Assembly: GCA_030710605.1 (NCBI GenBank)
Contig: CP092874.1
Span: 21,429,880-21,493,879 of the forward strand
Length of the DNA stretch: 64,000 nt
Direction: 5' to 3'
DNA from: Cordylochernes scorpioides
Lineage: Eukaryota > Arthropoda > Arachnida > Pseudoscorpiones > Chernetidae
Shown here: one piece after another, positions 8,101 to 63,365 of the stretch
Layout: every line of letters starts with the position of its first letter
Position numbering within the stretch: position 1 is the stretch's first letter
The notes under the pieces: model-generated
Database searches by the model: none
Seen by the model: the letters and a program-made list of their open reading frames with translations, nothing else
What the model was told of the DNA's origin: nothing
Translations under genes and position numbers: made by a program

Positions 8101-10913
8101 TTAGCTGGAGAACTAAAGCGAGGGAAATAAAAGAAAATTCGCTGAGGGAAGATTCTCTTTTTCTATAATGGCAATACAAGCTTTCAGGTGTAGCAACCCT
8201 TTAGCATAGTTATACTTGTTGATGGGCTGTTGCGCCCGAAAACTTGTAGTACCGTTGTGTTCTCTACCTAACAAAAATAGCACTTGACGAACACTATAAG
8301 GTATAAACTATTTATTTCTATAAATAAGATACTTTCACTCTCCTCTTATACTCTATATACATCCAATCATTTTTACATATTTAATTTTCTATCAGAAAAT
8401 TAATACATATTTACATATATGCTGCATTTTTTTTCTTTATGAATAAAATTTGCATATATGGAATCATTACATATATAAAAATAAACTCCCTTCTCAGTAA
8501 ATTTTCTTTTATTTTTAATTTTATCTATCTAAGGGATTATATAACAACACACAAATACAAGTATACAAGAAACTTAGCCCTGGATGTTTTATTGATTTTA
8601 TTAAAAAATAAAACCTTATAAAAAGAAAGGCTACCTCTGTTATTTAGATCAATCCCGGCAAAATTTATATTTATCGATGAAGCGCCTAGTTATTGCGTCT
8701 ATTTCGTTGGGGAGAAAGGTGTCTTTGTTCTTATTTTAGCGATTAATTTTTCCTCATAATAAAATTTCCACCTAGTGACTCCACTTAGTGATATGAAATA
8801 CGACCAGAGCAAATGTAACAGCCTAGGGCTAGATACCAACATAAATTCTTCTTCAAATTAAAATACACTTCGGCCTGTAAATATTAAAAAAAAAAAAAAG
8901 ATTTACTGGCTGAAGTGTCTTTAATTTGAAGAAATATGAAAGCCGGCCAGGCAGCCTCTATCTTTACGGTGACCAACACAAATGTTATCCCATAGGGACG
9001 GAGTGTACGTGCAGGAACTGGAGCACTACCGTAGCCACGCCTCGCCCCACGCCGGCGACCAGTACGTCCCCGTGATGCGGGAGTTCATCACCGGAGCCAG
9101 TTTCAAGATCTCCGAACTGGAAGACCAGTTTCAAGACATGAAGATCAGGGTAAGTCGTCAACCTCCTACCTACCACGACAAGTTGTCCAACCCCCGTACT
9201 GTCGTACAGTACGATAAGGTAGTGCGACTGTTCGGCGAGCTACCCACCTCGACACAACCCGAGGACTTCTTCGGCACCTTCGACAGCTTCCTGACGGCCT
9301 TCCGAGAGGCACATCTGGACAACGTCAGACGCCGGCGGGAAGCCGAGGAGAAAAAACCCAAGATGGACACAGAGGTAGCGTCCAATCTCTCCATAACATC
9401 TTTCTCTCTAATTCAATACAATAATCCTCTTTTATTAAGCTGAAAATATCAGGCTTTCAAAGATAAATTAAGAAAAAAGGTAATATTGATAAAGGCCAAC
9501 AAGCCGAAATGCGTACGTGGTTAGCTTTTCGTTATTAATAAAGAATGGATATTTGGCCGATTATGGAATAATTAAAAATCAACGTTTAGTTGATGTTTAT
9601 TCCGACAGATGGCGCAAGCCATCAGCAACTTTTAGTTGCATAATCAGGAGATACCTTTCTCTTAATTTATCAACCTAATCCCCAGTACAATTTCACTTGT
9701 GTACTATTTATTTTTTCACATTCCGGTGGATACGTTTCTTTTAAAACGTTTTTTAATTCATAAATCCCCAGCTTTCGGTATGAAAATTGATTCTACAGGA
9801 GAAAACACACTACAATAAACCGCCACCCACAATATAGGACAAGAGTTAAAACAAAATATAAGCATCAGAAACTTTTAGTTGCACGATCTGGAGATGTCCT
9901 TTTCTTTATTTACCTTAAATGGTTAGAATCCTTTGATCGCAATCAGAATCTACAACAAATCTCCAATTGTCTTCTTTTATCTACCTGATTGATTTCTACC
10001 CTCCAAATGACAGTCATTCCCTAGCCATGTATGTAAATATCTTTATTTACGGGGTTGCTAACCTCAATGAATGATTTTTGAGCAATCAGAAAAACAACAA
10101 GTCTCCAAGGATAAGTATCTTCTTTTATCTATCTGATTGCTTTCTTCCTTTCAAATGATAGTCATACAGGTATGGAAATATCTTTATTTACGGGGCACCA
10201 GAATGGATGATTTTTGAGCAATCAGAATTAACAACAAGTCTCCAAGGATAAGTATCTTCTTTTATCTACCTGATTAATTTCTACCCTCCAAATGACATTC
10301 ATTCCCTAACCAGGTATATGGAAAATCTTTATTTACGGGGCTTCTAACCAGAATGGATGATTTTTGAGCTATCACAATCAACAACAAAGTCTCCAAGGAT
10401 AAGTGTCTTCTTTTATCTACCTGATTGCTTTCTTCCTTTCAAATGATAGTCATACCCTAGCCATGTATGGAAATATCTTTATTCACGGTGCTGCTAACCT
10501 GAATGGATGATTTTTGAGCAATCAGAATCAGAAACAACAAGTCTCCAAGGATAAGTGTCTTCTTTTATCTACCTGATTGCTTTCTTTCTTTCAAATGACT
10601 ATCATACCTCATCCATCCAGACATCGAGATGATGTGTTCCCAGGGCCGCCGTAAAGAGCACCGTTCCTCGGTGTCCCTAGCCACCCAACGTAAGAGCGCC
10701 ACTCTCAACTCCTACAAATGTGCATCCATCGACTCCGGCATCTCCTCCGACAAGGGGGAATTCGACGACCTCATCAAGGCGCTCCGAGCCGGCGACGTCT
10801 TCGTCGATGACTTCGGCAAAAACAGACGAAACCGCCGTAACCGCTCTAGTCATTCACCCACTCACTCCTATGCCCCAGGTCGCGAGCGTAAAAGCTCTAA
10901 AATTAAATGTTAA
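1936..10913 (+). CDS. DAAM: DAAM-family formin, 3' half (FH2 core to DAD and stop), nine exons
   Basis: Spliced exons 1936-2142, 3163-3269, 3327-3415, 3817-4031, 7572-7633, 7765-7825, 9015-9149, 9210-9374 and 10644-10913 join in phase into 436 residues plus stop. Visible family marks are IDSRRAQNC and LPKDMVEQ (FH2 knob), [10 protein letters not shown], the formin signature [11 protein letters not shown] followed by [27 protein letters not shown] (post region), [12 protein letters not shown], and a C-terminal [19 protein letters not shown], followed by a basic NRRNRRNR tail. This combination is DAAM rather than Diaphanous, FMNL or FHOD. DAAM formins nucleate and elongate actin filaments; DAD binds the N-terminal regulatory region and is released by Rho or Dishevelled. 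The N-terminal part is not upstream within the window; a matching 5' part lies at 50054-62778. Two introns are tiny (57 and 60 bp). Family call is firm; exon edges rest on GT-AG and phase. Confidence 0.9.
2235..2440. mobile_element. MITE-like element with TACACTCATGG terminal inverted repeats
   Basis: A 206-bp unit begins TACACTCATGGACAAAA and ends TTTTGTCCATGAGTGTA. It contains the recurrent core ATAACTCTGAAAGATATTACAG and has no coding capacity. It lies in an intron of the DAAM part. Single full-length copies are also at 11682-11888 and 62800-63004. Derived tandem arrays are at 26150-26565, 47625-48200 and 58146-58840. The TA at each end suggests a Tc1/mariner-type insertion preference, by inference. 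Confidence 0.8.
2441..3162. other. DAAM intron, no gene seen
   Basis: AT-rich intron. At about 2935-2995 there is a decayed ribozyme-like stretch (GGAGAGAGTCGTTGCTC then GAAAGCTCAC, followed by AATAAAATGAG) of the type seen near Penelope fragments. A CA-rich run sits at about 2818-2832. No exon was found. Confidence 0.5.
3163..3269 (+). CDS. DAAM: DAAM exon: FH2, [10 protein letters not shown] segment
   Basis: Acceptor GTGTCTCCAG. Begins [17 protein letters not shown] and runs through ADRFLYEIG; ends in phase 2 at donor AA|GTATGT. Joining to 3327 gives [12 protein letters not shown], which matches the length of the family at this point. Reading straight through the 57-bp intron instead would insert 19 extra residues. 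Confidence 0.87.
3327..3415 (+). CDS. DAAM: DAAM exon: FH2, helix after the micro-intron
   Basis: Acceptor TGTCGCAG|G. Encodes [20 protein letters not shown] and ELKPKME; ends after the first base of a codon at donor GAAG|GTGAGG, and the next exon supplies the two missing bases. The YEQRL...FYKKRF pattern is the FH2 helix that follows ADRFL in DAAM formins. Confidence 0.86.
3484..3757 (+). repeat. SINE-like dispersed repeat, copy 1 of 3
   Basis: About 275 bp containing GCGTCTGCCTTTGTCATT, GGCAGGCCGACTTAGCTCC and GGAGCCCTTACAGGGTACT. Near-identical copies are at about 49170-49470 (reverse) and 62190-62475 (forward). The high copy similarity and GC content stand out from the intron around it. 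No coding frame is shared by the copies. Confidence 0.75.
3817..4031 (+). CDS. DAAM: DAAM exon: FH2 signature [11 protein letters not shown]
   Basis: Acceptor GGCTGTGCAG, donor AAG|GTACTG, ending in phase 0. Encodes [20 protein letters not shown] and [16 protein letters not shown], then [19 protein letters not shown] is the most conserved stretch of FH2, and the run to LLHYL is standard. This is the strongest single exon for the formin call. Confidence 0.95.
5128..5583 (+). pseudogene. Penelope-like element, C-terminal GIY-YIG endonuclease, 5' truncated
   Basis: The frame runs 151 residues to a stop at 5583 and has no credible start codon (upstream stops). It has a linker ending in LRHPH, then [30 protein letters not shown] and [13 protein letters not shown]. 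This is the Cys-containing GIY-YIG endonuclease that follows the reverse transcriptase in Penelope-like retroelements. No reverse transcriptase part is attached, so it is a 5'-truncated copy. The downstream part to about 6000 ends with CCCGAAAGCTCGC and AATAAAGATACTCG, typical of the 3' terminal repeat region. It sits sense to DAAM in an intron. Confidence 0.85.
5915..5965 (+). ncRNA. Decayed hammerhead-like motif at the 3' end of the Penelope fragment
   Basis: CCGTCGAAGGG, loop ATTTTT, then CCCGAAAGC. The stem GGG/CCC closed by GAAA matches stem II and the G12-A14 side of a hammerhead. The CUGANGA side is degraded (CCGTCGA), so cleavage is unlikely. Similar decayed versions occur at 8212-8250, 23422-23450, 31560-31592 and 35556-35592. 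Confidence 0.5.
6371..6945. repeat. Near-perfect 0.55-kb palindrome (foldback)
   Basis: The left arm from GTGGTAAGGATAAAATAT to about 6640 is repeated in reverse complement to about 6945. Each arm carries the CTGTAGAAGGGC...GCCCGAAAGC ribozyme-like motif and AATAAATCAATGAAG. The right arm has an extra duplicated block of about 45 bases (TTTAACAAATTTTATTAA). Very few differences separate the arms, so the inversion is recent. Confidence 0.85.
7200..7508 (-). CDS. Unrecognised small ORF with signal peptide and TM segment, antisense in a DAAM intron
   Basis: 102 codons from ATG at 7508 to a stop at 7200. The first 22 residues look like a cleavable signal ([17 protein letters not shown]). A charged stretch ([17 protein letters not shown]) is followed by a hydrophobic segment, [17 protein letters not shown], and a Pro-rich tail. 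I do not recognise a family. The frame is markedly more GC-rich than the intron around it, and a TATAAAAAG lies just upstream of the ATG, too close to be its promoter. It ends 64 bases before a DAAM exon on the other strand. It could be an intron-nested gene, one exon of a gene, or part of a mobile element. Confidence 0.4.
   Translation of the reverse strand: MRIKMLFNAILLLLLALSAQATDPGHLDFREKLDYLFAHWDDVLIKALAVLCVIAMTLCLCRLSAKEPGIPEGPSKPPIQECPSIIINVVDPPTLDAPPPLT
7572..7633 (+). CDS. DAAM: DAAM exon: FH2, [12 protein letters not shown] segment
   Basis: Short exon of 62 bp. Acceptor GGTGTCCAG, donor GTGAG|GTACGT. Encodes [20 protein letters not shown] plus two bases of a Ser codon completed by the next exon. 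It fills the gap between LLELIEKK and MAELES exactly as in the family. Confidence 0.85.
7765..7825 (+). CDS. DAAM: DAAM exon: FH2 post region, [15 protein letters not shown]
   Basis: Acceptor TATATTGCAG, donor AGAGG|GTACAG, 61 bp. Encodes [20 protein letters not shown] after completing the split Ser codon. The match to the DAAM post-helix is immediate. Ends in phase 0 and joins 9015. Confidence 0.88.
7826..9014. other. DAAM intron, repeats
   Basis: AT-rich. It includes a decayed ribozyme-like motif at about 8212-8250 (TTGATGGGC, loop, GCCCGAAAAC) and a short GATGGCG-family tail with CCCGGCAAAATTT at about 8650-8670. No exon was found; the open stretch at 8439-8621 is AT-rich filler. Confidence 0.5.
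9015..9149 (+). CDS. DAAM: DAAM exon: FH2 C-terminal lobe, [14 protein letters not shown]
   Basis: I chose the acceptor GTACGTGCAG (phase 0) over an upstream CATAG at 8991-8995, because the latter breaks phase with 7825 and adds about six residues. Encodes [20 protein letters not shown] and [17 protein letters not shown]. Donor AGG|GTAAGT starts a 60-bp intron. Confidence 0.86.
9210..9374 (+). CDS. DAAM: DAAM exon: FH2 end, [12 protein letters not shown]
   Basis: Acceptor TCGTACAG, donor GAG|GTAGCG, 55 codons, phase 0. Encodes [20 protein letters not shown] and [15 protein letters not shown], then a charged helix [12 protein letters not shown]. PxDFFGxFDxFL is the standard end of FH2 in DAAM. 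Confidence 0.9.
9470..9760 (+). repeat. Family-2 ribozyme-associated element, single orientation
   Basis: Starts with a decayed hammerhead (GATAAAGGCC, loop AACA, AGCCGAAATGCGTACGTGG). It continues to GATGGCGCAAGCCATCAGC and GTTGCATAATCAGGAGAT, and ends in a T-rich tail with CAGTACAATTTCACTTG. This is the only copy of the family that keeps the ribozyme end; the others at 12140-12415, 17870-18060, 23035-23190, 31190-31460, 41855-42166 and 43838-44020 are foldbacks or fragments. Confidence 0.65.
9900..10620. repeat. Imperfect tandem repeat of about 130 bp inside the last DAAM intron
   Basis: Five to six diverged units share AACAACAAGTCTCCAAGG, TCTTCTTTTATCTACCTGAT and AATATCTTTATTTACGGGG. Unit length varies from about 115 to 140 bp. 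The array ends a few bases before the last exon's acceptor. Confidence 0.75.
10644..10913 (+). CDS. DAAM: DAAM last exon: DAD and basic tail, stop TAA
   Basis: Acceptor TGTGTTCCCAG in phase 0; an alternative AG at 10627-10628 would add five residues (MMCSQ). Encodes a Ser-rich linker with [14 protein letters not shown], then [29 protein letters not shown] and ends SSKIKC. The DAD is the autoinhibitory peptide that docks on the N-terminal regulatory region. A possible poly(A) signal AATAAA is at 11031-11036. Confidence 0.93.
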   Translation, partial: GRRKEHRSSVSLATQRKSATLNSYKCASIDSGISSDKGEFDDLIKALRAGDVFVDDFGKNRRNRRNRSSHSPTHSYAPGRERKSSKIKC

Positions 10914-11888: not shown

Positions 11889-12139
11889 TATCGCATAATT
11901 TTTTTAAAACGATATTTTATAAATCTTTGATAAATTTCTATATTAATACTAGGAGAAATTGTGTTAATCTTTAATAATTAAGTAAGAAAATTCACATCAT
12001 GAGTGTCTTCTTTTTTTTTTTATTATCGTGAAAAAGCGAGATTTCAAGTACAGATGCTTTCCTATTGACTTATCAAGTTTTAAATGGAGAACTATGGCAT
12101 TTGATAAACTAATACAAGAATTAAGAAAAGAAAAAAAAA

Positions 12140-12415
12140 AGGCATCTCCTTATCGGAAAACTGAAAATTGCTAATGGCTTGCACCATTTATCGGAATAAA
12201 TATCAACTATTCAAATAATCAAGAATGGGTATTTGGCCAATTCTGGAATAAATAAAAAATCAACGAATAGTTGATATTTATTCCGATAGATGGCGCAAGC
12301 CATCAGCAACTTTCAGTTACCCAATAAGAAGATGCCTTTTTTTTCATTCATTAATTTATGAATCTTATCCCAGTACAATATCACATTTGCACTATTTTTC
12401 CACATATTACAAGAG
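12140..12415. repeat. Family-2 foldback
   Basis: Arms contain GGCATCTCCTTATCG and its complement around a centre with TCAAGAATGGGTATTTGG. The right arm has GATGGCGCAAGCCATCAGC and the tail CCCAGTACAATATCACATT. The left arm has several differences (TGCACCATTTATCGG), so it is an older copy. Confidence 0.7.
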
Positions 12416-17350: not shown

Positions 17351-17359
17351 CTATTCAGC

Positions 17360-17545: not shown

Positions 17546-18149
17546 CGTAATATGAATAAATCTTTAATAAATTAATTAACATTTCTTTAACTTTTCAAAC
17601 CAAATCATCACCACAGGTCTTCTTGAATGTTTTGTCTTGTTTGTAACCATCTTTAAAATCCATCGCTAAGTTTTCATTTAGGCAGATAGATGATTACAAA
17701 GAAATACTTAGCATCAACAAAAACATTTTGATAATACATCTTGAATTACATAGACTCGTATCGAATGCTAAGAAGAAGAAGAGAGAATAAGAAAAGGTAA
17801 ACAAAGCTAGAAAGTATCAATAAAAATATTGTAGCATCATATTTAACTTTTAATCAACATTAGATTCTATGTGAAAAAATAGTACAAGTGTGAAATTGTA
17901 CTGGGATAAGGTGCATAAATTAAGAAAAAGGCATCTCCTTATCGTGCAACTGAAAGTTGCTGATGGCTTGCGCCATCTATCGGAATAAATATCAACTATT
18001 CTCGTTGATTTTTAATTATTCCTTTCAGTTGCACGATAAGGAGATGCCTTTTTCTTAATTAGATTCTATATTTTGTTACTTAGTTCTTTTATTGTCTCTC
18101 TTAACCATTGTTAGTATTGATGGGTCTTTGTTTTGATTAAAATTAATTA
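17546..18149. other. AT-rich spacer with a family-2 foldback
   Basis: No gene. At 17870-18060 a family-2 foldback carries GTACAAGTGTGAAATTGTAC, GGCATCTCCTTATCGTGC and CTTGCGCCATCTATCGG. Its right arm is cut short after the centre and resumes at TTTCAGTTGCACGATAAGG. Confidence 0.6.
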
Positions 18150-20809: not shown

Positions 20810-20849
20810 CCACGCTGACGAGCGCCAACAGCGCGAAACGCGTTCGTGG
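20810..20849 (+). ncRNA. Hammerhead ribozyme, intact minimal core
   Basis: Stem I CCACG/CGTGG, core CTGACGA (20815-20821), stem II GCGC/GCGC with loop CAACA, GAAA (20835-20838), a two-pair stem III (AC/GT, loop GC) and H17 = T at 20844. All nucleotides needed for the CUGANGA...GAAA...UH scheme are present. The very short stem III is the form described from Penelope-like elements, and it may act as a dimer. It heads a family-1 element with a GATGG-TGC box about 127 bases downstream and the tail TTTCTTTATTTTTAATAAC. Confidence 0.85.
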
Positions 20850-25020: not shown

Positions 25021-25189
25021 CAGTTCCTATGACTGTCACTCGAGCGCCACCGTCGAGCTGATATGTGGTCCATAAAGTTCGCGGGTTGAATGAATTGTTT
25101 CCTTCCCAATATGTGTTTTTATCTAAGGATTAGAGGTAATTGTAATTTATATAAATTTAAAATTAACTTTTATTAGAACATTTATAATA

Positions 25190-25380
25190 TGATGCACTAG
25201 CGCGCCATCTGTTATCAAAATTCGAAACTATTTTAAAGGCGTAAGAATCTTTTTTGAAATTAAACAATATCTACTGCCCTTACTGCAATGGAAAAATTAA
25301 TCGGATGCTGCAAGGGCAGTAGAAATTGTTTAATTTCAAAAAGATTCTTACGCGTTTAAAATAGTTTCGAATTTTTTAAA
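25190..25380. repeat. Family-3 foldback, short centre
   Basis: Arms GCACTAGCGCGCCATCTG, ATTCGAAACTATTTTAAAGG and TTTCTACTGCCCTTACTGC with complements. The ribozyme-like centre has been lost here; only GGAAAAATTAATCGG remains. Confidence 0.7.
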
Positions 25381-25676: not shown

Positions 25677-27159
25677 TGTATTATAATTGGCAAGCTATCG
25701 AGTTAAAGAGATCTTCCACGAAAGCTTATCAATTATAATATTGTGAGGTAGAAAATAAGGAAAGACAAACTTCAGAATGACACAAGGCAATTTATTTAAG
25801 GCAAGAACAAAATCAACATTTATAAGATACAAGATAAGTAATGAGGGAAGTTTCCTGAGTATCAAAATATAAATAATATAAATATAAGAAAATTAATAAA
25901 CTGTGTGTGTACATAAAATATAATAAATACTTTGCTACAATAAATTAGAAAATAAACCTTTTGCGTAGAAGTTGATTGAATTTCAAAATAATTTCTGAAA
26001 TTTCAAACACGATAGAGTCAATTGTATATATTTTGATTCGACTTTGTCCAAGTCATTTTTACTCCAATCACTTTTATTCTAATCATTATACTCTTGTAGA
26101 CATTATCATGATTATTTGTGATAATTTATTACTAAAAATTGGCATATATACATATGGACAAAACTTAAGGAAGTTGTACCTTTCAGCATGTATATCGGGA
26201 CAATAACTCTGAAAGATATTACAGTGACCTTTATTGAAGACACACCAGATAAACAAATGTATATACACTCATGGACAAAACTTAAATAGATTGTACCTTT
26301 CAACATGTATATCGGGACAATAACTCTGAAAGATATTACAGAGACGTTTATTGAAGACACACGAGATAACCAAGTGTATATATACTCATGGACAAAACTT
26401 AAGGAACTTGTACCTTTCAGCATGTATATCGGGATTCAGACAATAACTCTGAAAGATATTACAATGACCTTTTTGAAGATACACAAGATACCAAGTGTAA
26501 ACAAATGACGATCGGCGACATCAAAAATTTTCCACTTCTTTAAGTTTTGACCATGAGAGTGTATCTTAAATATGATCATTAAAAATCATCAAAATTGCGA
26601 AATATTCGTAAATACGAGTTCAAACACAATAGTATAGAACGGTATGGTATATTGAACTGGCGAAACCGCTGGAAGCGTTTTCCACTGATGAGCCAGGCCT
26701 TCCCAATATTATTCTCATCTCAGTATTAGAATTATATGGAGAATTGTTTTAATTGAAAAAAAAATTGTTTAAATAAAATCAATTCTTGATTATAGATGAC
26801 CTGTTAAAAACCTCAGATTCACAGTGTACAATATTATTTAAAATCTTATGAAAATTGTATCAAATTATTAACACGCTACTTTTTATATAGACAATAAAAA
26901 ACTAATTTCTATATATCCATTTTATTCTAAAGATATTAATAAAATTGAAGAAATATGGCAGAGTTTCGCCAGTTTAATCTCGTGACAGCTTTAAGGTAAG
27001 GACTATATAAGGTCTGGGTAGAGAAAATAGTTTTAATTATTTATATATTTTAAAACGTTGTGTGTTGAAAATCTGTTACAATTTTCAATGATATATGGTA
27101 CTAAGGGTTTAATGATGATATTTTAAAATATTATATAATACACACACATAAACTACTTG
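25677..27159. other. AT-rich spacer with MITE-derived array
   Basis: Contains the tandem MITE-derived array (26150-26565), a permuted hammerhead-like motif (26657-26696) and a complementary GTTTCGCCAGTTTAATC at about 26966. Otherwise AT-rich with no exon seen. Confidence 0.6.
26150..26565 (+). repeat. Tandem array derived from the TACACTCATGG MITE, 3 units
   Basis: About 120-bp units made of the left two-thirds of the MITE (ACTCATGGACAAAACTTAA to GAGATAACCAAGTGTATATA) repeat head to tail; the last unit continues to the true MITE right end (GTTTTGACCATGAGAGTGTA). Confidence 0.85.
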
Positions 27160-41500: not shown

Positions 41501-44500
41501 TAGCGACAGTTTTTAGCTACCAGCAGTCAGTCAATTTATGTCAATAAACGAGATTACTGGAGTCCGTTTGCCTCAGTGAATCGACACCTCACTCTAGGCT
41601 ACCTCCCAACCTTCTAGGATAAAACAATTAGGAAATATCTTTAATATCGGTATAAAATTGTTGGATGTTTGTATGTCATGTAAACAAGATATAAGTAAAC
41701 AATGTATACGCGAGTTATATGCAAAATAGGAAATATCATCTTGTATCTTCAATCGGTATAAGACGATAACATTACATCCATATATATATAAGAAATGGAA
41801 GCACTAAAACACGAGTGTTTCTTTTTAAATATAAAACAAACTTATATAAAATTGTGAAAAAGGCATCTCCTTATCGTGCAACTGAAAGTTGCTGATGGCT
41901 TGCGCCATCTATCGGAATAAATATCAACTATTCTCGTTGATTTTTAATTATATCCAGAATTAGTCAAATACCCATTCTTGATCGTGGTTAGCTTTTCTTG
42001 ATTAATCAAGAATGGGTATTTGACTAATTCTGGATATAATTAAAAATCAACGAGAATAGTTGATATTTATTCCGATAGATGGCGCAAGCCATCAGTAACT
42101 ATCAGTTGCACGATAAGGAGATGCCTTTTTTATTATAATATTATATAAAATTATTGAATATTGTTATCTATATAAATAAAAATGAATGTTGTGTGTGTGT
42201 CTGTCCTTTATGCCTGACAAAACCACTCATTGGAACGCCATGAAACTTTGGGAAGTTATTTATTATAGTACTGGGAAGGTTTCTAGCAAATAAAATTTTT
42301 GAAATAACTTTTCGCCCAAAAATAATCAAGATAAATATTCTAATTTGTCTGTTATAATTCAACAATCTGCTCTAAATATTATCATGATGATAAGATGAAT
42401 TTGTAATGTAGAAAATTAGGAAAGAAAAAATTCAGGATGACACGGCAATTTATTTGAGACAAGAATAATGATACAATTCCAAGGCAAGATACTATTCCTT
42501 TAACTTTCAATTACCGAGGGAACCAATTAATATTGATTTTATTCAACTTATCGAGTATTTTTCAAGGGACCGGGAAAAAATGTTCACTTTATCAAGAGAT
42601 TCGTTAGGCAAACTTTTACTCGGGTAAAACCCGGGCGAAGCCGGGTACGTCCGCTAGTAGTTGATATTTATTCCGATAGATGGCGCAATCCATCAGCAAC
42701 TATCAGTTACACGATAAGGAGATGCCTTTTTTTATAATATTATATAAAATTATTGAATGTTGTTATGCCATATAAAAAATATTTAGAAAAACAACGCGAG
42801 TTACAAGATTTATAGAATAAATGTTTTTTAAAAAGTGAGAAATGGAGCGATTGATGAGTCGTCATGTTTCCAGCATATCTGACAAACGGCTTCATCAGCA
42901 TGCAGACAGCGCTAAGCCTCGCTTTCTTGGAGGAAACAGCGCCTTCTTTCAAGGCTTCCAACACCCAGGTAAAGCCCCCATCAAATTTCCACCTGATGTC
43001 CTCTTTACTCATTTCTAAAGACTTCCGTATTCAAACTCAATCCACGTTTGGTTTTTGTTGTTGTTTCTTATCCCCTTGTGTAAAGATTTCCACGAATTCC
43101 ATGAGTTCATGATCTCATGAAATGGGGTTTAGGAATGCAGCTTTCGTTGATTATGGCACAATGAAACAGGCACACTTTGGTGAAAGTCTGACTTTTTCCT
43201 GTAATTTGAGGCCATTCCTAACATGGAAGTCTTTGCTGCCGACTCTAACATGAGTACAGACACAGCTCCTCCGTATCCCTGGAGTGGGACCATTGCTGAG
43301 GTCCATCATCTGGGTCAGTTAAACTCAGAATTTTTAAAGAGGGAGTGTCCCTCCTGGTTACAGCATCAAGTCTACCAGAACAAGACTTGATCGTGTAGAG
43401 GGTTTACTGTACCTCCCAACAATGCACCACAGGCCAGGTACAGAAGGGTAAGCATGGGAGGCCACTTTTGGTTAATCCCCTTGGTTTGTTTTTCAATTCT
43501 TCGATGTTCTTTCAACTCTTTTCGATCCTTTTTTTCCCTTTCTTTCTCAACGGAAAATCTTCCTATCTCGGGAGATGAAGAATGTTGTATTCAGTGTTAG
43601 ACCAGTGGTTGATGCAGTTTCTGTTACGTCCCATGCCGTATCCTCTCTTCATCAACCTGGTGCCCATCACCCCGCTGATGATTGTCAACGGTTTGGCCGT
43701 TATCTGTCCACTCATCGTACATCTCATCGTGGTGGAAAAGGCCCACAAAATAACGGTAAACGGCTTTCTTCATTACCTTAGTAAATGATAAGGCAAAATT
43801 TATCTTACAGAGATTAGAAACATAAGATAACAATTATGAAAAAGGCATCTTCTTATCGTGCAACTGAAAGTTTCTGATGTCTTGCGCCATCTATTGTAAT
43901 AAATATCAACTATTTTCGTTGATTTTTTAATTATTCCAGAATGGGCAATAATACGGCGAGAATAGCTGATATTTATTCCGATAGATGGCGCAAGCCATCA
44001 GCAACTTTCAGTACAAACTACAAATGCGGAAAAAGAAAAATAAGAAATTTAAAACCTAGACAAATTCTCCATCAATTAAGCAAGAATGACGAAAAGTGAA
44101 AAAAAAAAAGGAAAAACAAACCCACCTTGAATATCAAACAAGCCAGACAAAACCTTCTCAAGAACAATATCCCCAAGGACCTGAGGACCCAACGAGACAT
44201 TAATATAAATTGTAAATGATCAAACCCTGTACATCCCCCACAGTAAATATGATGGTTGCTCTTTTTGAGCAGTGGCACCTAATAAAGTTATTTGGAACTA
44301 GAGCAACTTTCAGTTGCACGATAAGGAGATGCCTTTTTAAATAATGTATGCACCTTATTCCAGTACAATTTCACATTTGTACTATTTTTTCATAAGATAA
44401 CAAGTTAAATAATGCAACAGATTTCTGGAGACGAGTTTGTTTTCATTTCTATTAACACAATCTCGAGCTTTCGGGCATCTCTGCCCTTATACAGGAGTAC

Positions 44501-46781: not shown

Positions 46782-46881
46782 NNNNNNNNNNNNNNNNNNN
46801 NNNNNNNNNNNNNNNNNNNNNNNNNNNNNNNNNNNNNNNNNNNNNNNNNNNNNNNNNNNNNNNNNNNNNNNNNNNNNNNNN
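46782..46881. other. Assembly gap, exactly 100 N
   Basis: A round-number run of N, normally a gap of unknown size between contigs. ABCA sequence stops before it, and the DAAM 5' part starts after it without its own first exons. Confidence 0.98.
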
Positions 46882-49470: not shown

Positions 49471-49714
49471 TCATGATGGTTGTCAAATCTCAAGCTTTAC
49501 AAACTTGATACCATAATATGATTGAGTGGAGATAAGAAAGAAGAAGAAGGAAGTATCAAATTGTCTCCCTCGAGATCGCTTGTTTTACGGCGCTTGTCTT
49601 TAAGTTGCTTTGTTTAATAGCTTTACTTGTTCTTCTTTTTAAACTTGTTCAACATACCTATCATCAATGATTAAATTGGTTCATTTCGAGATATACATAT
49701 TAAAGAGATTGTAT

Positions 49715-49930
49715 TATGATGCATTAGCGCGCCATCTCTGTTATCAAAATTCAAAACTATTATAGACGCCTATAGTTCTTTTTAAAATAAAACAATTTCT
49801 ACTGTCCTTACTGCAATGGAAAACTGATGAGCCAGGACCTCCTATTAATTTTTCCATTGCAGTAAGGGCAGTAGAAATTGTTTTATTTTAAAAAGAATCT
49901 TACGCGTCTATAATAGTTTTGAGTTTTAAA
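49715..49930. repeat. Family-3 foldback
   Basis: Left end GATGCATTAGCGCGCCATC, arms ACTGTCCTTACTGCAATGG and complement, short centre AAAACTGATGAGCCAGGACC. The right end lacks its GATGGCGC box. Confidence 0.75.
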
Positions 49931-50171: not shown

Positions 50172-53100
50172 GTAAGTACTCACAGTCTAGGTCGGCTTTG
50201 ACGTTATTGGTTGAATACTTTGTTTTCTCATACAGGTTTTTAATTTATTATATTTGTAGCTATTAGGGATTGCATGTGTTGGTATTTGAAGGAAAGTTAT
50301 CATCAAAGTTGATTAATAAAACACTAAAATTCTCGGCGAGTGTAAAAATTTCAGTTGTACATATATCCACGCCTACGCGTATATTAGCAAACACTTCTAG
50401 TAAGAGATAGTCGATGTTTTTTTAATTAAACCCCCGTTGAAAAGCGATTATCGATTAAAAGATATATATAGCCTTATATAAGAATAAAAAGGAAACTCAT
50501 TGTGAGAAATCATTGTAGTTTCAAACCTGCGCTTGGATTATATAGCCATCCAGATCTATAAATGGCCCTTACCTCGGTAGCCCTCCTTCTAGCTTAGCGC
50601 TTGATTGTTTGACTAATTGGCCATTAGGGAATGGTCTTAAAAATTGAGCCGGACGTGATACAGCCTACAGCTCCCTAGTAGACAGGAGGGAGAATTATAA
50701 TTCGTCACCTTGCAACCATACCAGGGGGGGATGGTGTACTTACAGTACAAGCTTTCACAACCCTCTACCCACCATGATTATCATGGCCTGGTACTACATG
50801 TGTAGACATTTTAAATACATGTGTAGGCATGTGGTGTACCTACATCCTAGGATTATATAGCCATCCAGATCTATCAAAGGCCCTTAAGTCGGTAGCCCTG
50901 CTTCTAGCATAGTGAAACCTGATAGGTAGGAGGGAAAATATCAATTCTTCTCACCATACCATGAGAGAAACCTGGGCAAGAAGAAATGAACGTAAATACA
51001 CCAATGGATAGTATGTGGGTTATCCCTAGACTGCACGTACTGTATGTAGCCAGGCTAAACTGTCTCTCCTCACCATATGTGACAGTTGCGACACCAGCCA
51101 CCAGCTGTGACATCTGTGGAATGACGACTCCTTACCCATCCACATAAACGACTTGTCTTTTTTTTTAAATCAATAATTCTTCTTTGTTTTGTCACTCCGT
51201 GGTGTGTCGTAAGTTCTCTCGCCCAGATGTACGTGTAGTGTATTGTAGAATGGTGTGTGAGATAATGTTTTTAATTTAAATATCACGTCATATTATAGTG
51301 GACAGTTATCTTACCACTGGGTGTGTGATATGTTCTACAGTTATAGGAGAATTGATTGATCCAGGGTGGTTGATGCAAGAGTGATAACAACCGCTGGCTT
51401 GGACAACCACGAACCGTGAGCGAATTCCCACATTTAGCTCTTTTTCATTAAGAAAGAAAAGATATTAAACTGTTCTATCATTCGACTCGTTGTGTCTGAA
51501 AGTGGCGAAGGAAGCAGAAAGATGTAGTGTTGTATTAGAAATAGTGATTATACCTGACCGCGCTGTACGTTGTATTAGAACGAGTGGTATAAAGCCCTTC
51601 GATTTCCTACAGCCATCTATGGCGATTTGGCCCAGCCACTTTGCCAGCTAAACACCTCTTTGGCAGATTGTCAAGATTCCATTAGATCCCGTATGGATCT
51701 CATGGAATTAAGTCCTCCCTACACTGACGAGGGCGATTATCCCGAAACCATGGTCTCTAGGTGGACGCTTTTCAGTTTTCCAAAGCTGATGTTGTGGCTT
51801 TGTCACCAACCCGAGACCGTTAGTTTGCGGTGACCGTCAATAGATGGCGTCTAGTTTTGACGTCTATTTTGACGGGAGAGGCGACCTTTGTCTCTTTAGA
51901 TCAATATCCTCCCGGCAAAATTTCCATCAACTGTTTTCTGAATTAAAAAAAAATGCGCCAATGACTTTCGATTCTTGAGAAAGTCCAACCAACCCAGTGA
52001 GTGTGCAAGTTATTAAACGAGGCTCTCTTTGGTACATTTGTAAATGCAATAGTCGAACTGCGCTTTCTACATATGTAGACATGTGATGTACTTGCACCAT
52101 TGGATAGTGGGCTACCGTGGGCTACTTAGACCGAAGTCTGTACGCCTGTGGTGCACTTGCAGTAAAAACAGTCACTAAATACCCACCATGATTATCATGG
52201 CCTGTACCATGTGTACTAGGGATAATTTATAATAATTAAATGATCCACCGCGGGTATTTATAGAGAGATCTTTCCGAAAAAAAAAAAAGAAAGAAACCTT
52301 TCCTGTCAAAATCGACGCATAAACTTTGTGTCTCTAGCAAATTCTGAAGATTTCATCAATTCCCTGTAGATCACAATAAAATCAAAGCCTGTCTTGGAAT
52401 GACAAGGGCCATTTGCCCGAAACTACAGGTGGGCGTTCTCATTTTGCCAAAGCTGGTGTTGTAGCTCATTCCTTATCTCACCACTGGCAAAGTTTTTACT
52501 AGGGTTTATAGACGTAATTCATTGTTCTAACGTATAATTAAAGGGGAATTTGCACGAATAACATCTTCCCGAAACTCAAAATTATATTTTAGCCTGAAAA
52601 TCGACCTTGTCACTTCACCAGCCTAAACACCTTTTTGGCCAATTCGACCGTTTTCATAATTCTTCTCGTAGTATGTTATAAAATAGAAGCCGTCCCTGTA
52701 CTGATGAGGGACATAGCCTGAAACCATGGTATACTGGTTGTTGGCTTTTGTCTGTATTTGTCAATACTGGTGTTCTGGCTTATTATTTATCATCTACGTT
52801 TTGTACTGGAGTGTTAACACAAAATGCGAATTGTTTCATTATTTTAATGCATTTTAAAAGAGAGAGAGGTGTGATTTTGGTATACATGTATATATTTAAT
52901 TAAAAAGGTATATATTGGATCAAAATATCATTTATTTTACCAATATTTCAGTTGGCTGAACGCCAACCTTTTTCAAGGTATTATAACATTAATCTATATT
53001 AAAAATAAAGAAAGCATATCCTGACCACAAGCACATGTGAATTTTAGATGGCAGAGCGCCATCTAGTGGAGCAAAAATAAACTAAACGTTTATTAACCTT

Positions 53101-56100
53101 GCTCCGTGATATTTGGCCAACCCAATTTCTTGATAAATCATAATCTTGATAAATCAATTCTTGATAATTAAATTCTTGATAAATCAATGGCTTTTCTTGA
53201 TTTATCAAGAAATTGGGTTGGCCAAATATCACGGAGCAAGTTAAACGTTTAGTTTATTTTTGCCCCACTAGATGGCGCTCTGCCGTCTAAAAAGCACATG
53301 TGCTTGTAGTCAGGATATGCTTTATTTATTTTTAATATTAACACCTGACCCACTTATCTTTTATTTTTTCTATTGTTTTTTTCATATTAATCTATATATA
53401 GTATGTGTGGTTAGATATGTTTTCTCAGTATCCACAAGTTGTATGCTAACCCTGTGGTGGGCAATATACAGTGGAGTCCAGCTCCCCCCAACACTGGCTG
53501 CTACTGGACCGTCTAGTTCAGCAGGTTGTCCTCCAGGGGGAGCTGGGGGAGGATCCTGACTGCACCCCCATTGCCATCAATGTCCGCGATGTTGTCCAGC
53601 TGTGAGTATCATAGTTGTGATTTTTTTAAATTTTATTATTACCGAAGCACTATCAGACTATTGTGCTATATTAGAATTATTTACATATATATATTCGAAA
53701 CTATTTTAAAGGCGTAAGATTCTTTTTGAAAATAAACACTATCTACTGCCATTACTGCAATGAAAAAATTAATGGGAGGGCCTGGCTCATCAGTGATGAA
53801 CCCTCCCAGCGGTTTCGCCAGTTTAATCTACCATTTACTGATGAGCCAGGCCCTCCCATTAATTTTTCCATTGCAGTTAGGGCAGTAGAAATTGTTTATT
53901 TTCAAAAAGAATCTTACGCCTTTAAAATAGTTTCGAATTTTGATAACAGATGGCGCGCTAGTGCAACATATATACCTTTAATTATTTACACGATGTAGTG
54001 ATTTATAAATCTGTGTACAAATAGCTCTAAACTTGCCAAAGTTTTCATAAGATTGAGTATATACAGAAAGATGGCATTATGTCAAAGTAAGCAAGTACAA
54101 TTTGGTTAGTCAGAGGGCAAACCAACAAAAGATGGTGTTTCAACATCTAGACAGCATGTTGGAACATTTATAACTCTCAAGTCAAAGACAAAACTTTAAA
54201 AGAGTCCTTTGCCTGTGAAGAATGAAGTAGTGTATTTATCAGAAACAATGAAGCTTGGTACATCTCTCAGAAAAAAATTCTTGAACGTTGCATTAGTTTG
54301 AGAAAGATAAAATATAAATTTTGTATTGATATATAATTTATTCAACTCATTTGTAAGGGGCTTATTTAGTGTGGATGGACGGATGGATTCCAGAATGTCG
54401 AGTAGCGGACATGTGATTTATCTTTGTCACCCCGCTCTAGAGTGGACACTAACCGCGGTAGACAACAGCCAATGTCTGTCTGTTTAGAGGGGGGGGGGGG
54501 GGGGGCACACAATAACCATTTAACACATCAATTAAAAACCAATCAATTAAACTATGTAAAAACATGTGGGTATGACGTCATATAGTGTAATTACTGGGGA
54601 ACACAGATGGTGATTTCACATGACTACCTGAACAACAATTTTCCATAAACTGACACATGGTAGTGAATGCCATGTTTATCACACGGTGTTTGACGGGGGA
54701 ATGTATTGGAACCTTGGTTTATACAATGTTTATAAGACAAATTCACAATGTTTAATCTCTTATATAGTTTTACACCAAACAACGCTTTAAAACATTTTGA
54801 AAGAACATTTAATAAAATGATAACTGAGATTGAAAATTCTTCTTATACACAGGGATTTCATTTTCAAATTGGGGAACTTCTTCCAATTTATAGAATAGGT
54901 TAGTAGGGACTTATGCTTGTAATATTTTTTGTTTATGTTTATTATTGATGAAAGATATATTTTTATATAAAAGACTTATTTATCTTAAGTGAACAACGTG
55001 CAACATACTAATAATGTAAAGTTAGATGTATATTACATATTTATAAAAACAACAATGGTGGTCGATGGTCAAATATATTTAAACATATTATATTACAATG
55101 CTATGTTCTGATCTTGTAGCGTTCTTTGATGGACCCATTCATCTAGGAGAATAGGGGATTGATATGAGGGGATTTGAATTACGCTGCTACACTGTGTTGA
55201 AATAGGTTATAATGACAGGAAGGGTATGAAGGCAGTATTATGTGGACTACGGCGTTTAGTGTTTGAACCATTCACTGTTCAGAGTACGATGTTTTAAAAT
55301 AAAAATTACCAACAAAATATATCACATGTGTCCGAATGTTGCTGATGTTTTGTACCATCCATCTGAATAAAACAACATAATCAGATGTTTTTTTTAATAT
55401 CTTATATATACATTTACCTCCCCGATATCCTACATTTTAGCCCTTTGTTCTATTTTTAGCATGTAGAGATTAGGGTTTGAAACGATGCTATTTTTATGTT
55501 ATACAGTATACAGATTAATTAAAAAAGGCATATATTGGATCAAAATATCATTTATTTTACCAATATTTCAGTTAGCTGAACGCCAACCTTTATCAAGGTA
55601 TTATAACATATTTAATGTGTGTCAACAACAAACTCAGCGCCACATAACGTCAACAACATGTTGCTGACGTTATGTGGCGCTGAGTTTGTTGTTTACACAC
55701 ATTAAATATGTTATAACACCTTTAACACCTTGATAAAGGTTGGCGTTCAGCCAACTGAAATATTGGTAAAATAAATGATATTTTGATCCAATATATGTCT
55801 TTTTAATTAAAGATTTATTTATGGATTGCTCTATTTTCAAAACAGTATACAGTGTAGGAGGTTTGATTCACAGGACTATCTCACTGTCAACAGCATTCAC
55901 CACATGTAGAAATTAGTGTTGTTTAAATTACCTGCAAAGGTTTAAGGTACTATGGTTTATAGACACATCCTAGAAGCAAATACGGCCACCCAGACCTTTC
56001 GGTCCATAAACCGGCATGCGATAGCATACCCATTGCTGCATTATAGACACATCCTAGAAGCAGTGGCCACCCAGACCTTACGGTCCATAAACCGGAGCAT

Positions 56101-59100: not shown

Positions 59101-62100
59101 ATTGGTATTAGATGTCTGAGAGTAAAATTCTACAAGATGGGGGGTCGAGAACGGTGGATTGTTTGAGAGAGAATATATCGAGGAATTTTACATATTTCCA
59201 GAATAAAGTTGCATAAAAGCTCGACATATGCAATTAAGATAATTTTATATTTTATGAAACGTTGCGAGTGGAGAAAGGTTTATACGAAACTTGGCATCTA
59301 TAAAGATTGCCATAGGGACTTAATAATTGTTTGAGTTTACTTTGAATAAAACATAGTTTATACGTACATGTGTTTTATAACTCTTTTGATAATGATTTAT
59401 CATGCTAAATTTCATAAATGTATACATTATCTCTCTTATATATTATCTATCTTGATTTGTAAAAAGCTTTCTCTCTTTTTTTCAACTTTATTTTCCTCTT
59501 TTGCCCCCTTTATTTTTTGAGCTGCTTTCTTTAGGGTTTTATTTATTTTTAAATGTGGATTTTCATTTTCTATCTCTGCTTCTTTTCTGCTATCATCATG
59601 ATCGTCTGCAAAACTTCTTCTGCTATCATTGCTATCGTCTGCAAAACTTCCGCCAGAATTTTTTTTATCGTCACCCATCTTCTGCTCACTTTTTATTTTT
59701 CGTCTGCAACTTTTCTTCTGCTAGCACTATTATCGTCTGCAACTTTTCTTCTGCTGACTTTTTATTTATTTTTTCATATCTCTCTGCTCTTCTGTTTTTA
59801 TTTCTCTCAGCTTTCTCTTCAAACTCAAAATGATAAATTTTTCCTTTTAAAGTGTTTATTATTATTATTTTCCCCCAATTTTTGGACCATTTCTAGGAAG
59901 ATCNNNNNNNNNNNNNNNNNNNNNNNNNNNNNNNNNNNNNNNNNNNNNNNNNNNNNNNNNNNNNNNNNNNNNNNNNNNNNNNNNNNNNNNNNNNNNNNNN
60001 NNNTCCAATCCAAGAACGACAAGATGAAAGTTAAACTGGAAAAGGAATCTGTTGAAAATTTAGAAGCCAAACAAAAGATAGCTGAGCTTGAATTTAAAGT
60101 GAAAGAATATGCAGATATGGTAAGTTTACCCCCCTACTTCTCCTTCTTTTGTTTATTATTCCAATCCCCCATTTTTTGTTTGTGTTTTCTTTTATATTTT
60201 TTGGATTTCATTATAATATAATGATGATGTAGAAGAAGAAAAAAAATGAAACAGGTAAGTATCCATTGTAAAATCAGTGTAATATGCATGCCACTCTTAA
60301 AAAGATACGAGATTTTTTTTTGATAATACTATGATAACTTTAAACGAAATTGAAGATAATAAAAAATGCCACCATAGAAAGAGTTTATCATTATAAAAGT
60401 TTCAATATAAATATTTTTTTCACTGAAAATTTTTTGACTTTTTTTTAATTAAAAAAAAATAGGAAGAAATGTTTCTCTCGAAATATATTTAAAAATTACA
60501 GATGAATGTATGTCTCTTTTTATTCTTATTGTTTTTAGGTTTAGAGATTTTTTTATTGTGTACCCGGTTTTGTGAATATTTCCATTTATATAAATTAGAA
60601 GAGACAGAATTAAGTCTAAATGCTGTCTACATGGTCATGTCTATGTTGTGTTTGCGCTTTTAATCAGATACATTGAAAAATTAACTTCATTTTTCTATTA
60701 AACGGTTCGTTAGAAAGTTAAGAGTACCAATGTATATGGAATATTTGACTGTGTCAGTGGTAGACAGAGACTCATCAATCTACATTGTAGACGCGGTGTA
60801 GAGGTTTTTTGTTATAAAATCAACCATTCAGGAGTTTAAGGAGGTGTGAACGACGTATGTCTGTGGGGCTCCAGCTCTCCCAGCGGGGGAGACAGGGGGT
60901 CTCCTCTAAGGTGGAGACTCTACTCCAGAACGGCAGTCTCTCAGACGACATCAAGGCAGAGATCCACCAGTCGTCTGCTGGGGAGATCAAACCCCCGCCC
61001 CCCATGGTAAACGGGGACATGATGCCCCCTCCTCCTCCCCCACCGCCCCCGTCAGGTAACCCCACAATACTTTGAACACCCTTTGAACACAAGGCAATAA
61101 CTCGTCATCTGTAATCAAGAAATGACACTTATAAAGCACCGATTTTTTTTTAAATTTCAAACAGTTATAAAATGAAAGGATTTAAAAGCACGAATGTTTC
61201 TTTTATACATAATACAAACTTCTACTGCCCTTACTGCGATGAAAAAATATAATGAGAGGGCTTGGCTCATCAGTGGTGAACCCTCCCAGCGGTTTGTATT
61301 ATGTATAAAAAAAAAACATTCGTGCTTTTAAATCCTTTCATTTTATATGTATAGATGGCGCGTTATTACTTTGTGTTAATTTAAATAGTTAGCACACATT
61401 CTAGTGTTCTTATCTGCTATGAAATAATATAATGGGAGGATCCAGCTCATCAGTGGTGAACTCTTTCTGCTGTTTCGCCAGTTTAATCTACCATTACCGC
61501 TTTTTTTCGAGCACTACTATTGTATTGGATGATTATATATCAAACAATGAAGAGAGTTGAATCTTAGTTATGATGTTTAATCCAGCTATGGACATAGTTA
61601 CATATTGGCATCGAGCAAGGCTCTTCCTCATGCCTACCTTTCTTATACCCCAAATCACCACAGATAAATATCACAAACAATACCTTCTTCTGCTCACATA
61701 TCTTTATGTCGTAGAATTTACATAAAAACCTCGCAACTAATCTAAAAAATTACAATAAAACCTCCCATAAGCGACCCATCTGATGAACTCTACCTCCTTG
61801 AACGACCCACCTTTGTAAAATCAATTATTCAAAAGCCATTTAAAACCTGCTTAAGGAACCTTCAACAGGATCGTCTCCAAGGAATAAAAACCAGCAGTAT
61901 CGTTTTTAAGACAGTTACTCATGGGAAATTATATTATACTAGCTCAGGGGGTCGGCAACCTTTTGAGTGAGAAGAGTCACAAATTAAAATTTACAAAATT
62001 TCAAAGTTTTTAGAAAGCAACAATAAATAATACTCGCATAAATAAAAACTTTATATATGTATTATTGATATTATTGGACAAGACACTACCACCATTAAGT

Positions 62101-63004: not shown

Positions 63005-63129
63005 TACTCCTTTTTTAAAATATAGATCAAACTGACATTTTTGGTTGGTTTAAGCTCTATCTATAGTCTTATTACATGGAGTCTGAAAAAATTAAAAGAA
63101 TAAAAATATAAAAGCTAATCACATTTAAT

Positions 63130-63365
63130 AGTAATAATAAAATATATTAAAAATGTCATATCCTGACCAGGAGCACATGTGTTTTACAGAAGGCAGAGCG
63201 CCATCTGGTGGAACAGAAATCAACTAAACATTGATTTAACCTGTTCCCTGATATTTGGCCAACCCAATTTCTTGATAAATTAAGAAAAGCCATCCACGAA
63301 CGCGTTTCGCGCTTTTGGCGCTCGTCAGCGTGGAGTAGGCTGAACCACTGCGACCAAAAAATAAT
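63130..63365 (-). repeat. Family-1 element, minus strand, with intact hammerhead
   Basis: Minus-strand order: hammerhead (63333-63294), TTTCTTAATTTATCAAG, GATTTCTGTTCCACCAGATG, GCGCTCTGCC, CACATGTGCTCCTGGTCAGG. It is nearly collinear with the + strand copy at 20800-21005. Confidence 0.8.
63294..63333 (-). ncRNA. Hammerhead ribozyme, intact core, minus strand
   Basis: Read on the minus strand: CCACG, CTGACGA, stem II GCGC/GCGC with loop CAAAA, GAAA, AC/GT stem III with loop GC, H17 = T, CGTGG. Only the stem II loop differs from the copy at 20810-20849. Confidence 0.84.

What the first reader, a model, noticed from the sequence alone, without database searches (positions are those of the whole stretch)
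9470..63365. Shared plan: ribozyme, about 120-150 bases, GATGGCG box, A/T tail, in at least four unrelated families
Family 1 (20800, 33890, 53005, 63130), family 2 (9470, 12140, 17870, 23035, 31190, 41855, 43838), family 3 (25190, 32815, 36380, 37420, 53690) and family 5 (51718-51930, tails at 1390, 14066) differ in sequence. Each has a hammerhead or hammerhead-like module at one end where this is retained, and a GATGGCG(C/T) box near the other. The plan is repeated with the same polarity. The box may be a binding site for a shared enzyme, for example a Penelope reverse transcriptase supplied in trans. I know of no description of this box.
Basis: partly seen in the sequence, partly recalled or inferred. 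Interest (0 to 1): 0.85.

Follow-up and report, generated by a model that had tools for sequence, protein, structure and literature searches.

The report
Ribozyme retrotransposons sharing one DNA box
This animal genome is littered with small ribozyme-carrying jumping elements of three unrelated lineages that share one ten-base box; one lineage carries a re-ordered hammerhead ribozyme of a kind so far reported from environmental RNA, and all appear to be copied by the same type of reverse transcriptase.

Summary
The box is YAGATGGCGY: 25 GATGGCGY in the window against 1.2 expected; 318,763 YAGATGGCGY in the 2.6 Gb genome against 4,264 for the reversed pattern. It lies mostly 111-126 nt after CUGAnGA: 46,239 of 67,832 type I hammerheads have it at the set spacing, and 23,233 of 77,140 blocks of a second class. 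The elements are tandem units of 338-372 nt (retrozymes), in three lineages.

Family 3 fits a type-SGC hammerhead, a non-circular permutation; its discoverers report none from genomes of known organisms (PMC10085705). Here 34,075 intact S+G blocks occur. Cleavage is untested.

In head-to-head insertions the two outer 3' ends fall at two sites about 25-60 nt apart, one per arm, in 57 of 68 pairs (shuffled mean 34.8, maximum 51), also in the genome's active Penelope element. This matches the Penelope "tail", so Penelope machinery in trans is supported. The box is not at that Penelope's 3' end and has no fixed distance to the start sites, so it is probably not the enzyme's docking site; a published CTCF site has the same core.

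The parts
36653..36714 (+). Family 3 type-SGC hammerhead, complete S, G and C blocks
37539..37600 (-). Family 3 type-SGC hammerhead, complete; its box at 37432-37439 (-)
37967..38031 (+). Family 3 type-SGC hammerhead, complete (one extra A in the C block); its box at 38131-38138
385..442 (+). Family 3b-like type-SGC hammerhead, weakened stem III
26639..26696 (+). Divergent type-SGC hammerhead
20810..20849 (+). Family 1 type I hammerhead; box decayed to GATGGTGC at 20938-20945
63294..63333 (-). Family 1 type I hammerhead; box at 63198-63205 (-)
36181..36220 (+). Family 1/2 type I hammerhead; decayed box at about 36304
51724..51753 (+). Family 5 type I hammerhead; box at 51843-51850
52701..52729 (+). 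Family 5 type I hammerhead, no exact box downstream
9608..9615 (+). Box of family 2; degenerate ribozyme upstream (by eye)
12133..12405 (+). Family 2 head-to-head insertion, outer ends at unit positions 150 and 203; box 12289-12296
17869..18060 (-). Family 2 head-to-head insertion, ends 203 and 154, 12-base target duplication; box 17970-17977 (-)
25167..25367 (-). Family 3 head-to-head insertion, ends 194 and 136, 13-base target duplication; box 25202-25209 (-)
33883..34082 (-). Family 1 head-to-head insertion, ends 159 and 205; box 33943-33950 (-)
36385..36802 (-). Family 3 head-to-head insertion, ends 174 and 141, 12-base target duplication; box 36400-36407 (-)
37418..38153 (.). Family 3 head-to-head insertion with a box at both outer ends (exception to the A/B rule: 173 and 174)
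41849..42130 (.). Family 2 head-to-head insertion with a box on both arms (41902 -, 42078 +), 12-base target duplication; exception to the A/B rule (155 and 147)
49714..49920 (-). Family 3 head-to-head insertion, ends 174 and 137, 15-base target duplication; box 49729-49736 (-)
53698..53965 (+). Family 3 head-to-head insertion, ends 136 and 168, 11-base target duplication; box 53949-53956
61166..61383 (+). Family 3b head-to-head insertion, ends 148 and 184; box 61354-61361
5131..6003 (+). 3' part of the active Penelope-like element (PLE-A): endonuclease frame 5125-5583, degenerate hammerhead-like motif near 5922, 3' end at site A; no box

Best explanation
These are non-autonomous ribozyme retrotransposons (retrozymes) of three lineages, one of which uses a non-circularly permuted (type-SGC) hammerhead. 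Tandem or circular transcripts are cut by the ribozyme into 338-372 nt units (inferred). A Penelope-type reverse transcriptase-endonuclease then copies them in trans: it opens A/T-rich DNA with a stagger of about 12 bases and primes on both broken ends, one cDNA starting at template site A and the other at site B, roughly 25-60 nt further 3', and the two cDNAs meet head to head (the geometry is shown; the enzyme is inferred). The box YAGATGGCGY is a separate cis signal kept by every lineage. Because its pairing partner and its distance to the start sites vary while its sequence does not, I judge it more likely a double-stranded DNA site for a host factor (promoter or insulator type, CTCF-like) than the enzyme's RNA docking site.
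For: Box enrichment. Ribozyme-box coupling, reversed controls 0; denominators. Hand-picked sample of box places: 21 of 22 boxes in 20 stretches assigned by eye to families 1, 2, 3, 3b or 5. Tandem units of 350-352, 338 and 371-372 nt; unit GC 0.345-0.411. Type-SGC blocks; 34,075 S+G blocks against 0 reversed. Stem II switches C-G to U-A between families 3 and 3b (10 and 10 of 23 copies). 3' ends cluster, 5' ends scatter. A/B pairing 57 of 68, shuffled mean 34.8, maximum 51 in 10,000 runs; Penelope element 5 of 6 of these. Target duplications: mean shared word 9.2, mode 12, against 5.45 when flanks are permuted; flank GC 0.239 (71 pairs). PMC11167929 (main text read): a Penelope protein cuts and extends both strands and has two start sites, the sequence between them being the 30-40 bp 'tail'. 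In families 3 and 3b the box is the only stretch with 9 of 10 bases identical over more than 100 diverged columns. A published CTCF site has the core TAGATGGCGC (passage of PMC2921154).
Against: No RNA, cleavage or binding data. Covariation in the SGC fold is thin: one clear switch; the number of pairs changed on both sides is not above shuffles (417 of 500 reach it), although cells changed on both sides (7 of 500) and the covariation score (11 of 500) are; the fifth stem I pair forms in 9 of 23 copies. The stem I-II linker is 7-8 nt, where the published form has typically three. The A/B rule fails in 11 of 68 pairs, and the cut points between A and B were set by me after seeing the ends. 30 of 71 pairs share 7 bases or fewer at the flanks, and some longer shared words are simple AT repeats. 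Only 30% of SGC C blocks have an intact box at the set distance, though arms ending at site A lack it by geometry. 10-base windows as conserved as the box are not rare over whole units (50 of 343 in families 1/2, 118 of 378 in 3/3b). The base before YAG is A in four of five families, where the recalled CTCF consensus has C or G.
Confidence: 0.6

Rival explanations
1. The box is the RNA docking or initiation signal of a Penelope-type (or other) reverse transcriptase; lineages acquired it to be copied in trans.
For: Kept in all lineages towards the 3' end at a similar distance from CUGAnGA; it forms a local hairpin in families 1 and 2, and CTAGATGGC/GCCATCTA against CCAGATGGC/GCCTTCTG suggests a compensated T-A to C-G change (read by eye).
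Against: Distance to start sites A and B is not constant (A is 13 nt upstream of the box in family 3, about 66 nt downstream in family 1). Pairing context differs: local hairpin in families 1, 2 and, weaker, 3; partly unpaired in family 5; a distant partner in the one family 3b unit folded. Not on the sense strand of PLE-A.
Confidence: 0.3
2. The box is specifically a CTCF insulator site (or a YY1-like initiator) spread by the retrozymes over the genome, one per about 8 kb.
For: A published CTCF site contains TAGATGGCGC (PMC2921154, one passage read); family 1 (CCACYAGATGGCGCT) also fits the recalled CTCF consensus CCASYAGRKGGCRSY at all 15 positions; sequence constant in changing RNA context. 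Raised from 0.35 because.
Against: No binding data in this species; the other families fit only the core of the recalled consensus; whether this genome encodes CTCF was not tested; YY1 motif recalled only.
Confidence: 0.4
3. The box has no function and is shared by descent or by recombination between retrozymes.
For: Families 1/2 and 3/3b are homologous pairs, and many other 10-base windows are as conserved within each pair.
Against: No long homology between lineages other than the ribozyme of families 1/2 and 5; in families 3 and 3b the box is the only conserved block in its diverged neighbourhood.
Confidence: 0.12
4. The family 3 motif is a degenerate or chance arrangement, not a working type-SGC hammerhead.
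For: Only one clear compensatory switch; no cleavage test; no Rfam hit on family 3 in L061, L039 or L071 up to E 1.
Against: All hammerhead core bases, stems I-III and the stem bracketing the C block are present in the published SGC order; 91.5% of cells pair against 32-54% when slid; 34,075 S+G blocks.
Confidence: 0.12

Closest known systems
Metazoan non-LTR retrozymes (Cervera and de la Pena 2020, PMC7229834)
   Same: Small tandem units within 170-400 nt, low GC, type I hammerhead, many copies, Penelope elements in the same genome.
   Different: Family 3 uses a type-SGC hammerhead. The box and the paired ends are not mentioned in what I read (parts 1-3 of 6 and found passages); the word 'inverted' does not occur in the main text.
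Type-SGC hammerhead ribozyme (Eckert et al. 2023, PMC10085705)
   Same: Block order S-G-C, core bases, stems I, II, III and the stem joining the other sides of stems I and II.
   Different: [quoted passage not shown] here the motif is in the DNA of an animal, tens of thousands of copies, inside a retrotransposon; linker 7-8 nt instead of typically three.
Penelope-like elements, Poseidon PAc (Frangieh et al. 2024, PMC11167929)
   Same: Ribozyme upstream of two reverse-transcription start sites 30-40 nt apart, A/T-rich targets, cutting and extension of both strands.
   Different: Retrozymes code for no protein; in vitro the start sites did not appear to differ between strands, whereas here each insertion tends to have one A end and one B end.
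SINE-LINE pairs sharing a 3' tail (recalled)
   Same: Short non-coding elements of different bodies sharing a 3' cis signal and borrowing an enzyme.
   Different: The shared box is not found at the 3' end of the presumed partner and is not at a fixed place relative to the 3' end.

Membership tests
Type-SGC hammerhead ribozyme | S, G, C block order with all conserved core bases | tested here: met
   23 aligned copies (6 of 29 distinct rows without an intact S block were dropped); single core departures occur, e.g. CTAATGA in L006
Type-SGC hammerhead ribozyme | Stems I, II, III and the stem bracketing the C block | tested here: met
   stems III, I, II and the bracketing stem 95.7, 85.2, 95.7 and 90.1% paired; stem I robust for 4 of 5 pairs
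Type-SGC hammerhead ribozyme | Covariation in the stems | tested here: inconclusive
   one clear switch in stem II; number of pairs changed on both sides not above shuffles, two other measures above (7 and 11 of 500 reach them)
Type-SGC hammerhead ribozyme | Linker of typically three nucleotides between stem I and stem II | tested here: not met
   7-8 nt; the paper calls three typical, not fixed
Type-SGC hammerhead ribozyme | Self-cleavage at the predicted site | not testable with these tools
   needs in vitro transcription
Metazoan retrozyme | Type I hammerhead in tandem units of 170-400 nt with low GC | tested here: met
   families 1 and 2: arrays of 350-352 and 338 nt, GC 0.400 and 0.411; family 5 ribozyme type I, no tandem array seen
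Metazoan retrozyme | Type I hammerhead, for family 3 | tested here: not met
   type-SGC instead; unit 371-372 nt
Metazoan retrozyme | Target-site duplication longer than 4 bases | tested here: met
   41 of 71 pairs share 8 or more bases, mode 12; mean 9.2 against 5.45 permuted; some are AT repeats
Metazoan retrozyme | Circular RNA in tissue | not testable with these tools
   no transcriptome here
Insertion by Penelope machinery | Two reverse-transcription start sites 30-40 nt apart | tested here: met
   about 30-50 nt apart in five retrozyme families, 11-60 nt in six PLE-A pairs
Insertion by Penelope machinery | A/T-rich target | tested here: met
   30-nt flanks of 71 pairs, mean GC 0.239; window bins 0.239-0.436
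Insertion by Penelope machinery | Element encodes RT and GIY-YIG endonuclease | tested here: not met
   units of 338-372 nt are too short; non-autonomous
CTCF binding site | Match to known CTCF sites | tested here: inconclusive
   core TAGATGGCGC occurs in one published CTCF site; family 1 fits a recalled consensus, the other families its core only; no binding test

The most novel reading that the evidence does not exclude
A class of animal retrotransposons runs on a non-circularly permuted hammerhead ribozyme, in tens of thousands of copies. Together with two classical-hammerhead lineages it has converged on one ten-base code, YAGATGGCGY, and on one insertion mechanism: paired target-primed reverse transcription from two template sites, one per DNA end, by a Penelope enzyme in trans.
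Probability: 0.6. Interest if true: 0.9.

Novelty: new variant of a known kind. Interest (0 to 1): 0.8.

Why it matters
It would give the type-SGC ribozyme an animal host, a DNA home and a biological role. It would link animal retrozymes to Penelope enzymes by a physical signature (two paired start sites). It offers a testable 10-base signal that ribozyme retrotransposons of different descent keep in common, present about once per 8 kb of this genome; if it binds an insulator protein, retrozymes would be seeding such sites across a genome.

Tried and rejected
Rfam: the window scan gave no hammerhead at gathering score; a permissive scan of five loci gave sub-threshold HH9 on family 2 and nothing on family 3. 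The Rfam hammerhead search of the genome rang in no control genome and was not informative. Literal text search for GATGGCGC: 641 papers, the 15 listed unrelated by title. tRNA primer-site and Pol III A-box readings of the box: considered by eye, only short or partial matches, rejected. Family 3 as a type II hammerhead: rejected by eye, no stem I or cleavage site between GAAA and CUGA. Box as PLE-A's own terminal signal: the PLE-A reference has no GATGGCG on the sense strand and one antisense position in the coding part (seen twice because the reference spans the repeat); in the 3' region only one-mismatch words; among 20 PLE-A loci the GATGGCG hits inside PLE-A matches sit at that coding position, the others lie outside. 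A first spacing window for family 3 was set too short (849 matches) and repeated. IMG/VR: exact family 3 stretch 0 hits; loose type I + box pattern 47 hits, at chance level by my rough estimate made without a call, not followed. Ribozyme cleavage site as a 5' end of genomic copies: 5' ends scatter, no support. Species not identified.

Full report
What was checked. GATGGCGY occurs 25 times in the window against 1.21 in shuffles. The window lies in a 2.62 Gb genome of 24 contigs, with FH2 (formin) exons. Genome-wide, YAGATGGCGY occurs 318,763 times against 4,264 for the pattern read backwards. I fetched 20 stretches around box places picked by hand from the first 100 listed (contig 1, + strand, first 2.1 Mb; not random). 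They hold 22 boxes, which I assign by eye: 4 family 1, 5 family 2, 6 family 3, 3 family 3b, 3 family 5, and 1 (L075) to none.

Coupling to ribozymes. CTGAYGAG-N9-15-CGAAAC occurs 67,832 times against 26 reversed; followed by N80-105 and GATGGCG it occurs 46,239 times against 0, about 68%. Variable-gap patterns can count one place twice (seen). In the loci of an earlier pattern (44,555 against 5; the first 30 places listed) 20 of 30 distinct ribozymes have GATGGCG within 60-400 nt, 17 at 119-126 and 3 at 96; three control words have it in 0, 3 and 0. For family 3, CACCACTGATGAGCCAR occurs 77,140 times, and 23,233 of these have YAGATGGCG after N85-110, against 0 reversed. In 15 family 3 or 3b copies the spacing from CUGAnGA to GATGGCG is 111-118 nt.

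Families. Families 1 and 2 form tandem arrays of 350-352 and 338 nt, families 3b and 3 of 372 and 371 nt. Families 1 and 2 align end to end at 65% identity, 3 and 3b at 67%. In both pairs the box is 9 of 10 identical. In 3/3b it is the only such block between columns 94 and 210; in 1/2 other blocks lie at columns 71-84 and 136-146. Over the whole units 118 of 378 and 50 of 343 windows are as conserved, so only its isolation in 3/3b is telling. Between lineages no hit is better than E 0.01 except a 25-nt ribozyme match between families 1/2 and 5; the best hit between families 3 and 1 is the box (13 nt, E 0.026) and so is the one between 3b and 2 (11 nt, E 0.48); three other comparisons give short non-box words, and one none (two best hits printed). 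Circular folding of one family 1 and one family 2 unit gives a rod with the ribozyme at one end and small hairpins, one made by the box, at the other. In family 5 the box is partly unpaired inside a hairpin (and my reading); in the one family 3b unit folded it pairs with a distant partner. So pairing context varies and sequence does not.

A permuted ribozyme. Family 3 has CUGAUGAG and CGAAA in an order that fits no classical hammerhead. Upstream lies [C]AGCGG-U-A-UGGU (family 3) or AGCGG-U-C-UGGUG (family 3b), which supplies the missing cleavage-site block: AGCGG pairs with CCGCU (stem III), UGGU with ACCA (stem I), YUGGC with GCCAR (stem II), and GGGAGGG with CCCUCCC brackets the C block. This is the type-SGC order of Eckert et al. 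(PMC10085705; outline, sections 13, 15 and 17 and found passages read), including the stem that joins the other sides of stems I and II. On 23 of 29 distinct copies (6 without an intact S block dropped) 91.5% of pair cells form, against 32-54% when partners are slid; stem II shows C-G in 10 and U-A in 10 copies; the number of pairs changed on both sides does not exceed shuffles, while cells so changed and the covariation score do (7 and 11 of 500 reach them). S+G blocks occur 34,075 times against 0 reversed. [quoted passage not shown] A full-text search for type-SGC in this library finds that paper only; a search for hammerhead, non-circular permutation and retrotransposon (two of three terms, from 2022) gave 49 papers, of which the 15 listed show no other relevant title.

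How they insert. Copies in the window and L001-L120 were aligned to genuine array stretches: 5' ends scatter, 3' ends concentrate in two zones (60, 70, 47 and 28 3' ends for families 1, 2, 3, 3b, with outliers). Counted from the cleavage site: family 1 about 151-166 and 202-208, family 2 about 146-157 and 198-207, family 3 about 127-151 (peak 136) and 159-184 (peak 174), family 3b about 123-157 and 180-186; family 5 about 130-151 and 176-188. 145 of 244 retrozyme arms lying wholly inside fetched DNA, and 17 of 22 PLE-A arms, are in head-to-head pairs. Of 71 pairs with both outer ends inside the fetched DNA, 3 were removed as duplicates (L022, L031, L085). In 57 of the remaining 68 one arm ends in the first and the other in the second zone (families 1, 2, 3, 3b, 5: 13/16, 14/18, 13/14, 4/5, 8/9; PLE-A 5/6), against a shuffled mean of 34.8 and maximum of 51 in 10,000. 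The cut points between zones were chosen after seeing the ends. Flanks share words of mean 9.2 bases (mode 12; 30 of 71 share 7 or fewer), against 5.45 (maximum 6.0 of 200) when flanks are permuted among all 71 pairs; some are simple AT repeats. The 30-nt flanks have mean GC 0.239.

The partner. The window carries the 3' end of a Penelope-like element, PLE-A, whose endonuclease frame has at least 150 genome copies (the number scored) of 99-100% identity. Its 3' ends in 20 loci and the window lie mostly at 2374-2394 and 2401-2444 of the reference, about 80-100 and 105-150 nt after a degenerate hammerhead-like motif (2295). Frangieh et al. (PMC11167929, main text read) show that a Penelope protein cuts and extends both strands and starts at internal sites; the sequence between the two start sites corresponds to the optional 30-40 bp tail of genomic copies. 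The retrozymes carry this signature. That a Penelope enzyme copies them is an inference from shared geometry; which Penelope family does so is unknown. PLE-A has no box on its sense strand, only an antisense GATGGCG in its coding part.

What the box does is not settled. Constant sequence, changing pairing, changing distance to the start sites and absence from PLE-A's 3' end favour a double-stranded DNA site over an RNA docking site. A paper describes a CTCF site with the core TAGATGGCGC (one passage of PMC2921154; the other 8 papers were not opened); the wider CTCF and YY1 consensus is from recall.

Known work compared. Animal retrozymes are described in PMC7229834 (parts 1-3 of 6 read; passages), with units of about 170-400 nt and type I hammerheads; the box and the paired ends are not mentioned in what I read.

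Noticed in passing
window 5131-6003; L001-L020: A very young Penelope-like family (150 scored copies at 99-100% identity), in several loci tandem at about 2.82 kb and head to head.
   Followed up: partly
window 34230-35010: A second, degenerate Penelope-like endonuclease (45% identical to PLE-A over 34614-34952) with a hammerhead-like motif downstream at 35562.
   Followed up: partly
L053 300-1000 and 2600-3501; L067; L069: A further Penelope-like family; a canonical hammerhead (CTGACGAGGACAAAAGATTTTTGTCGAAACGTCGAGG) precedes an ATG by eye; in L053 a retrozyme array sits between its 3' end and that hammerhead.
   Followed up: partly
L032: A full retrozyme unit inserted inside a Penelope-like reading frame (by eye).
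   Followed up: no
window 26145-26490, 47621-48110, 58248-58839: Three short arrays of one 117-123 base repeat (TATACACTCATGGACAAAACTTAAGG...), on both strands.
   Followed up: no
window 27158-30737: About 48 copies of a 75-base repeat that stays open in one frame over hundreds of codons (up to 366).
   Followed up: no
window 803-810 (-) and L075 at 190: Two boxes not assigned to any retrozyme family; L075 looks like a DNA transposon by eye.
   Followed up: no
window 46782-46881 and 59904-60003: Runs of 100 N: assembly gaps or withheld stretches.
   Followed up: no
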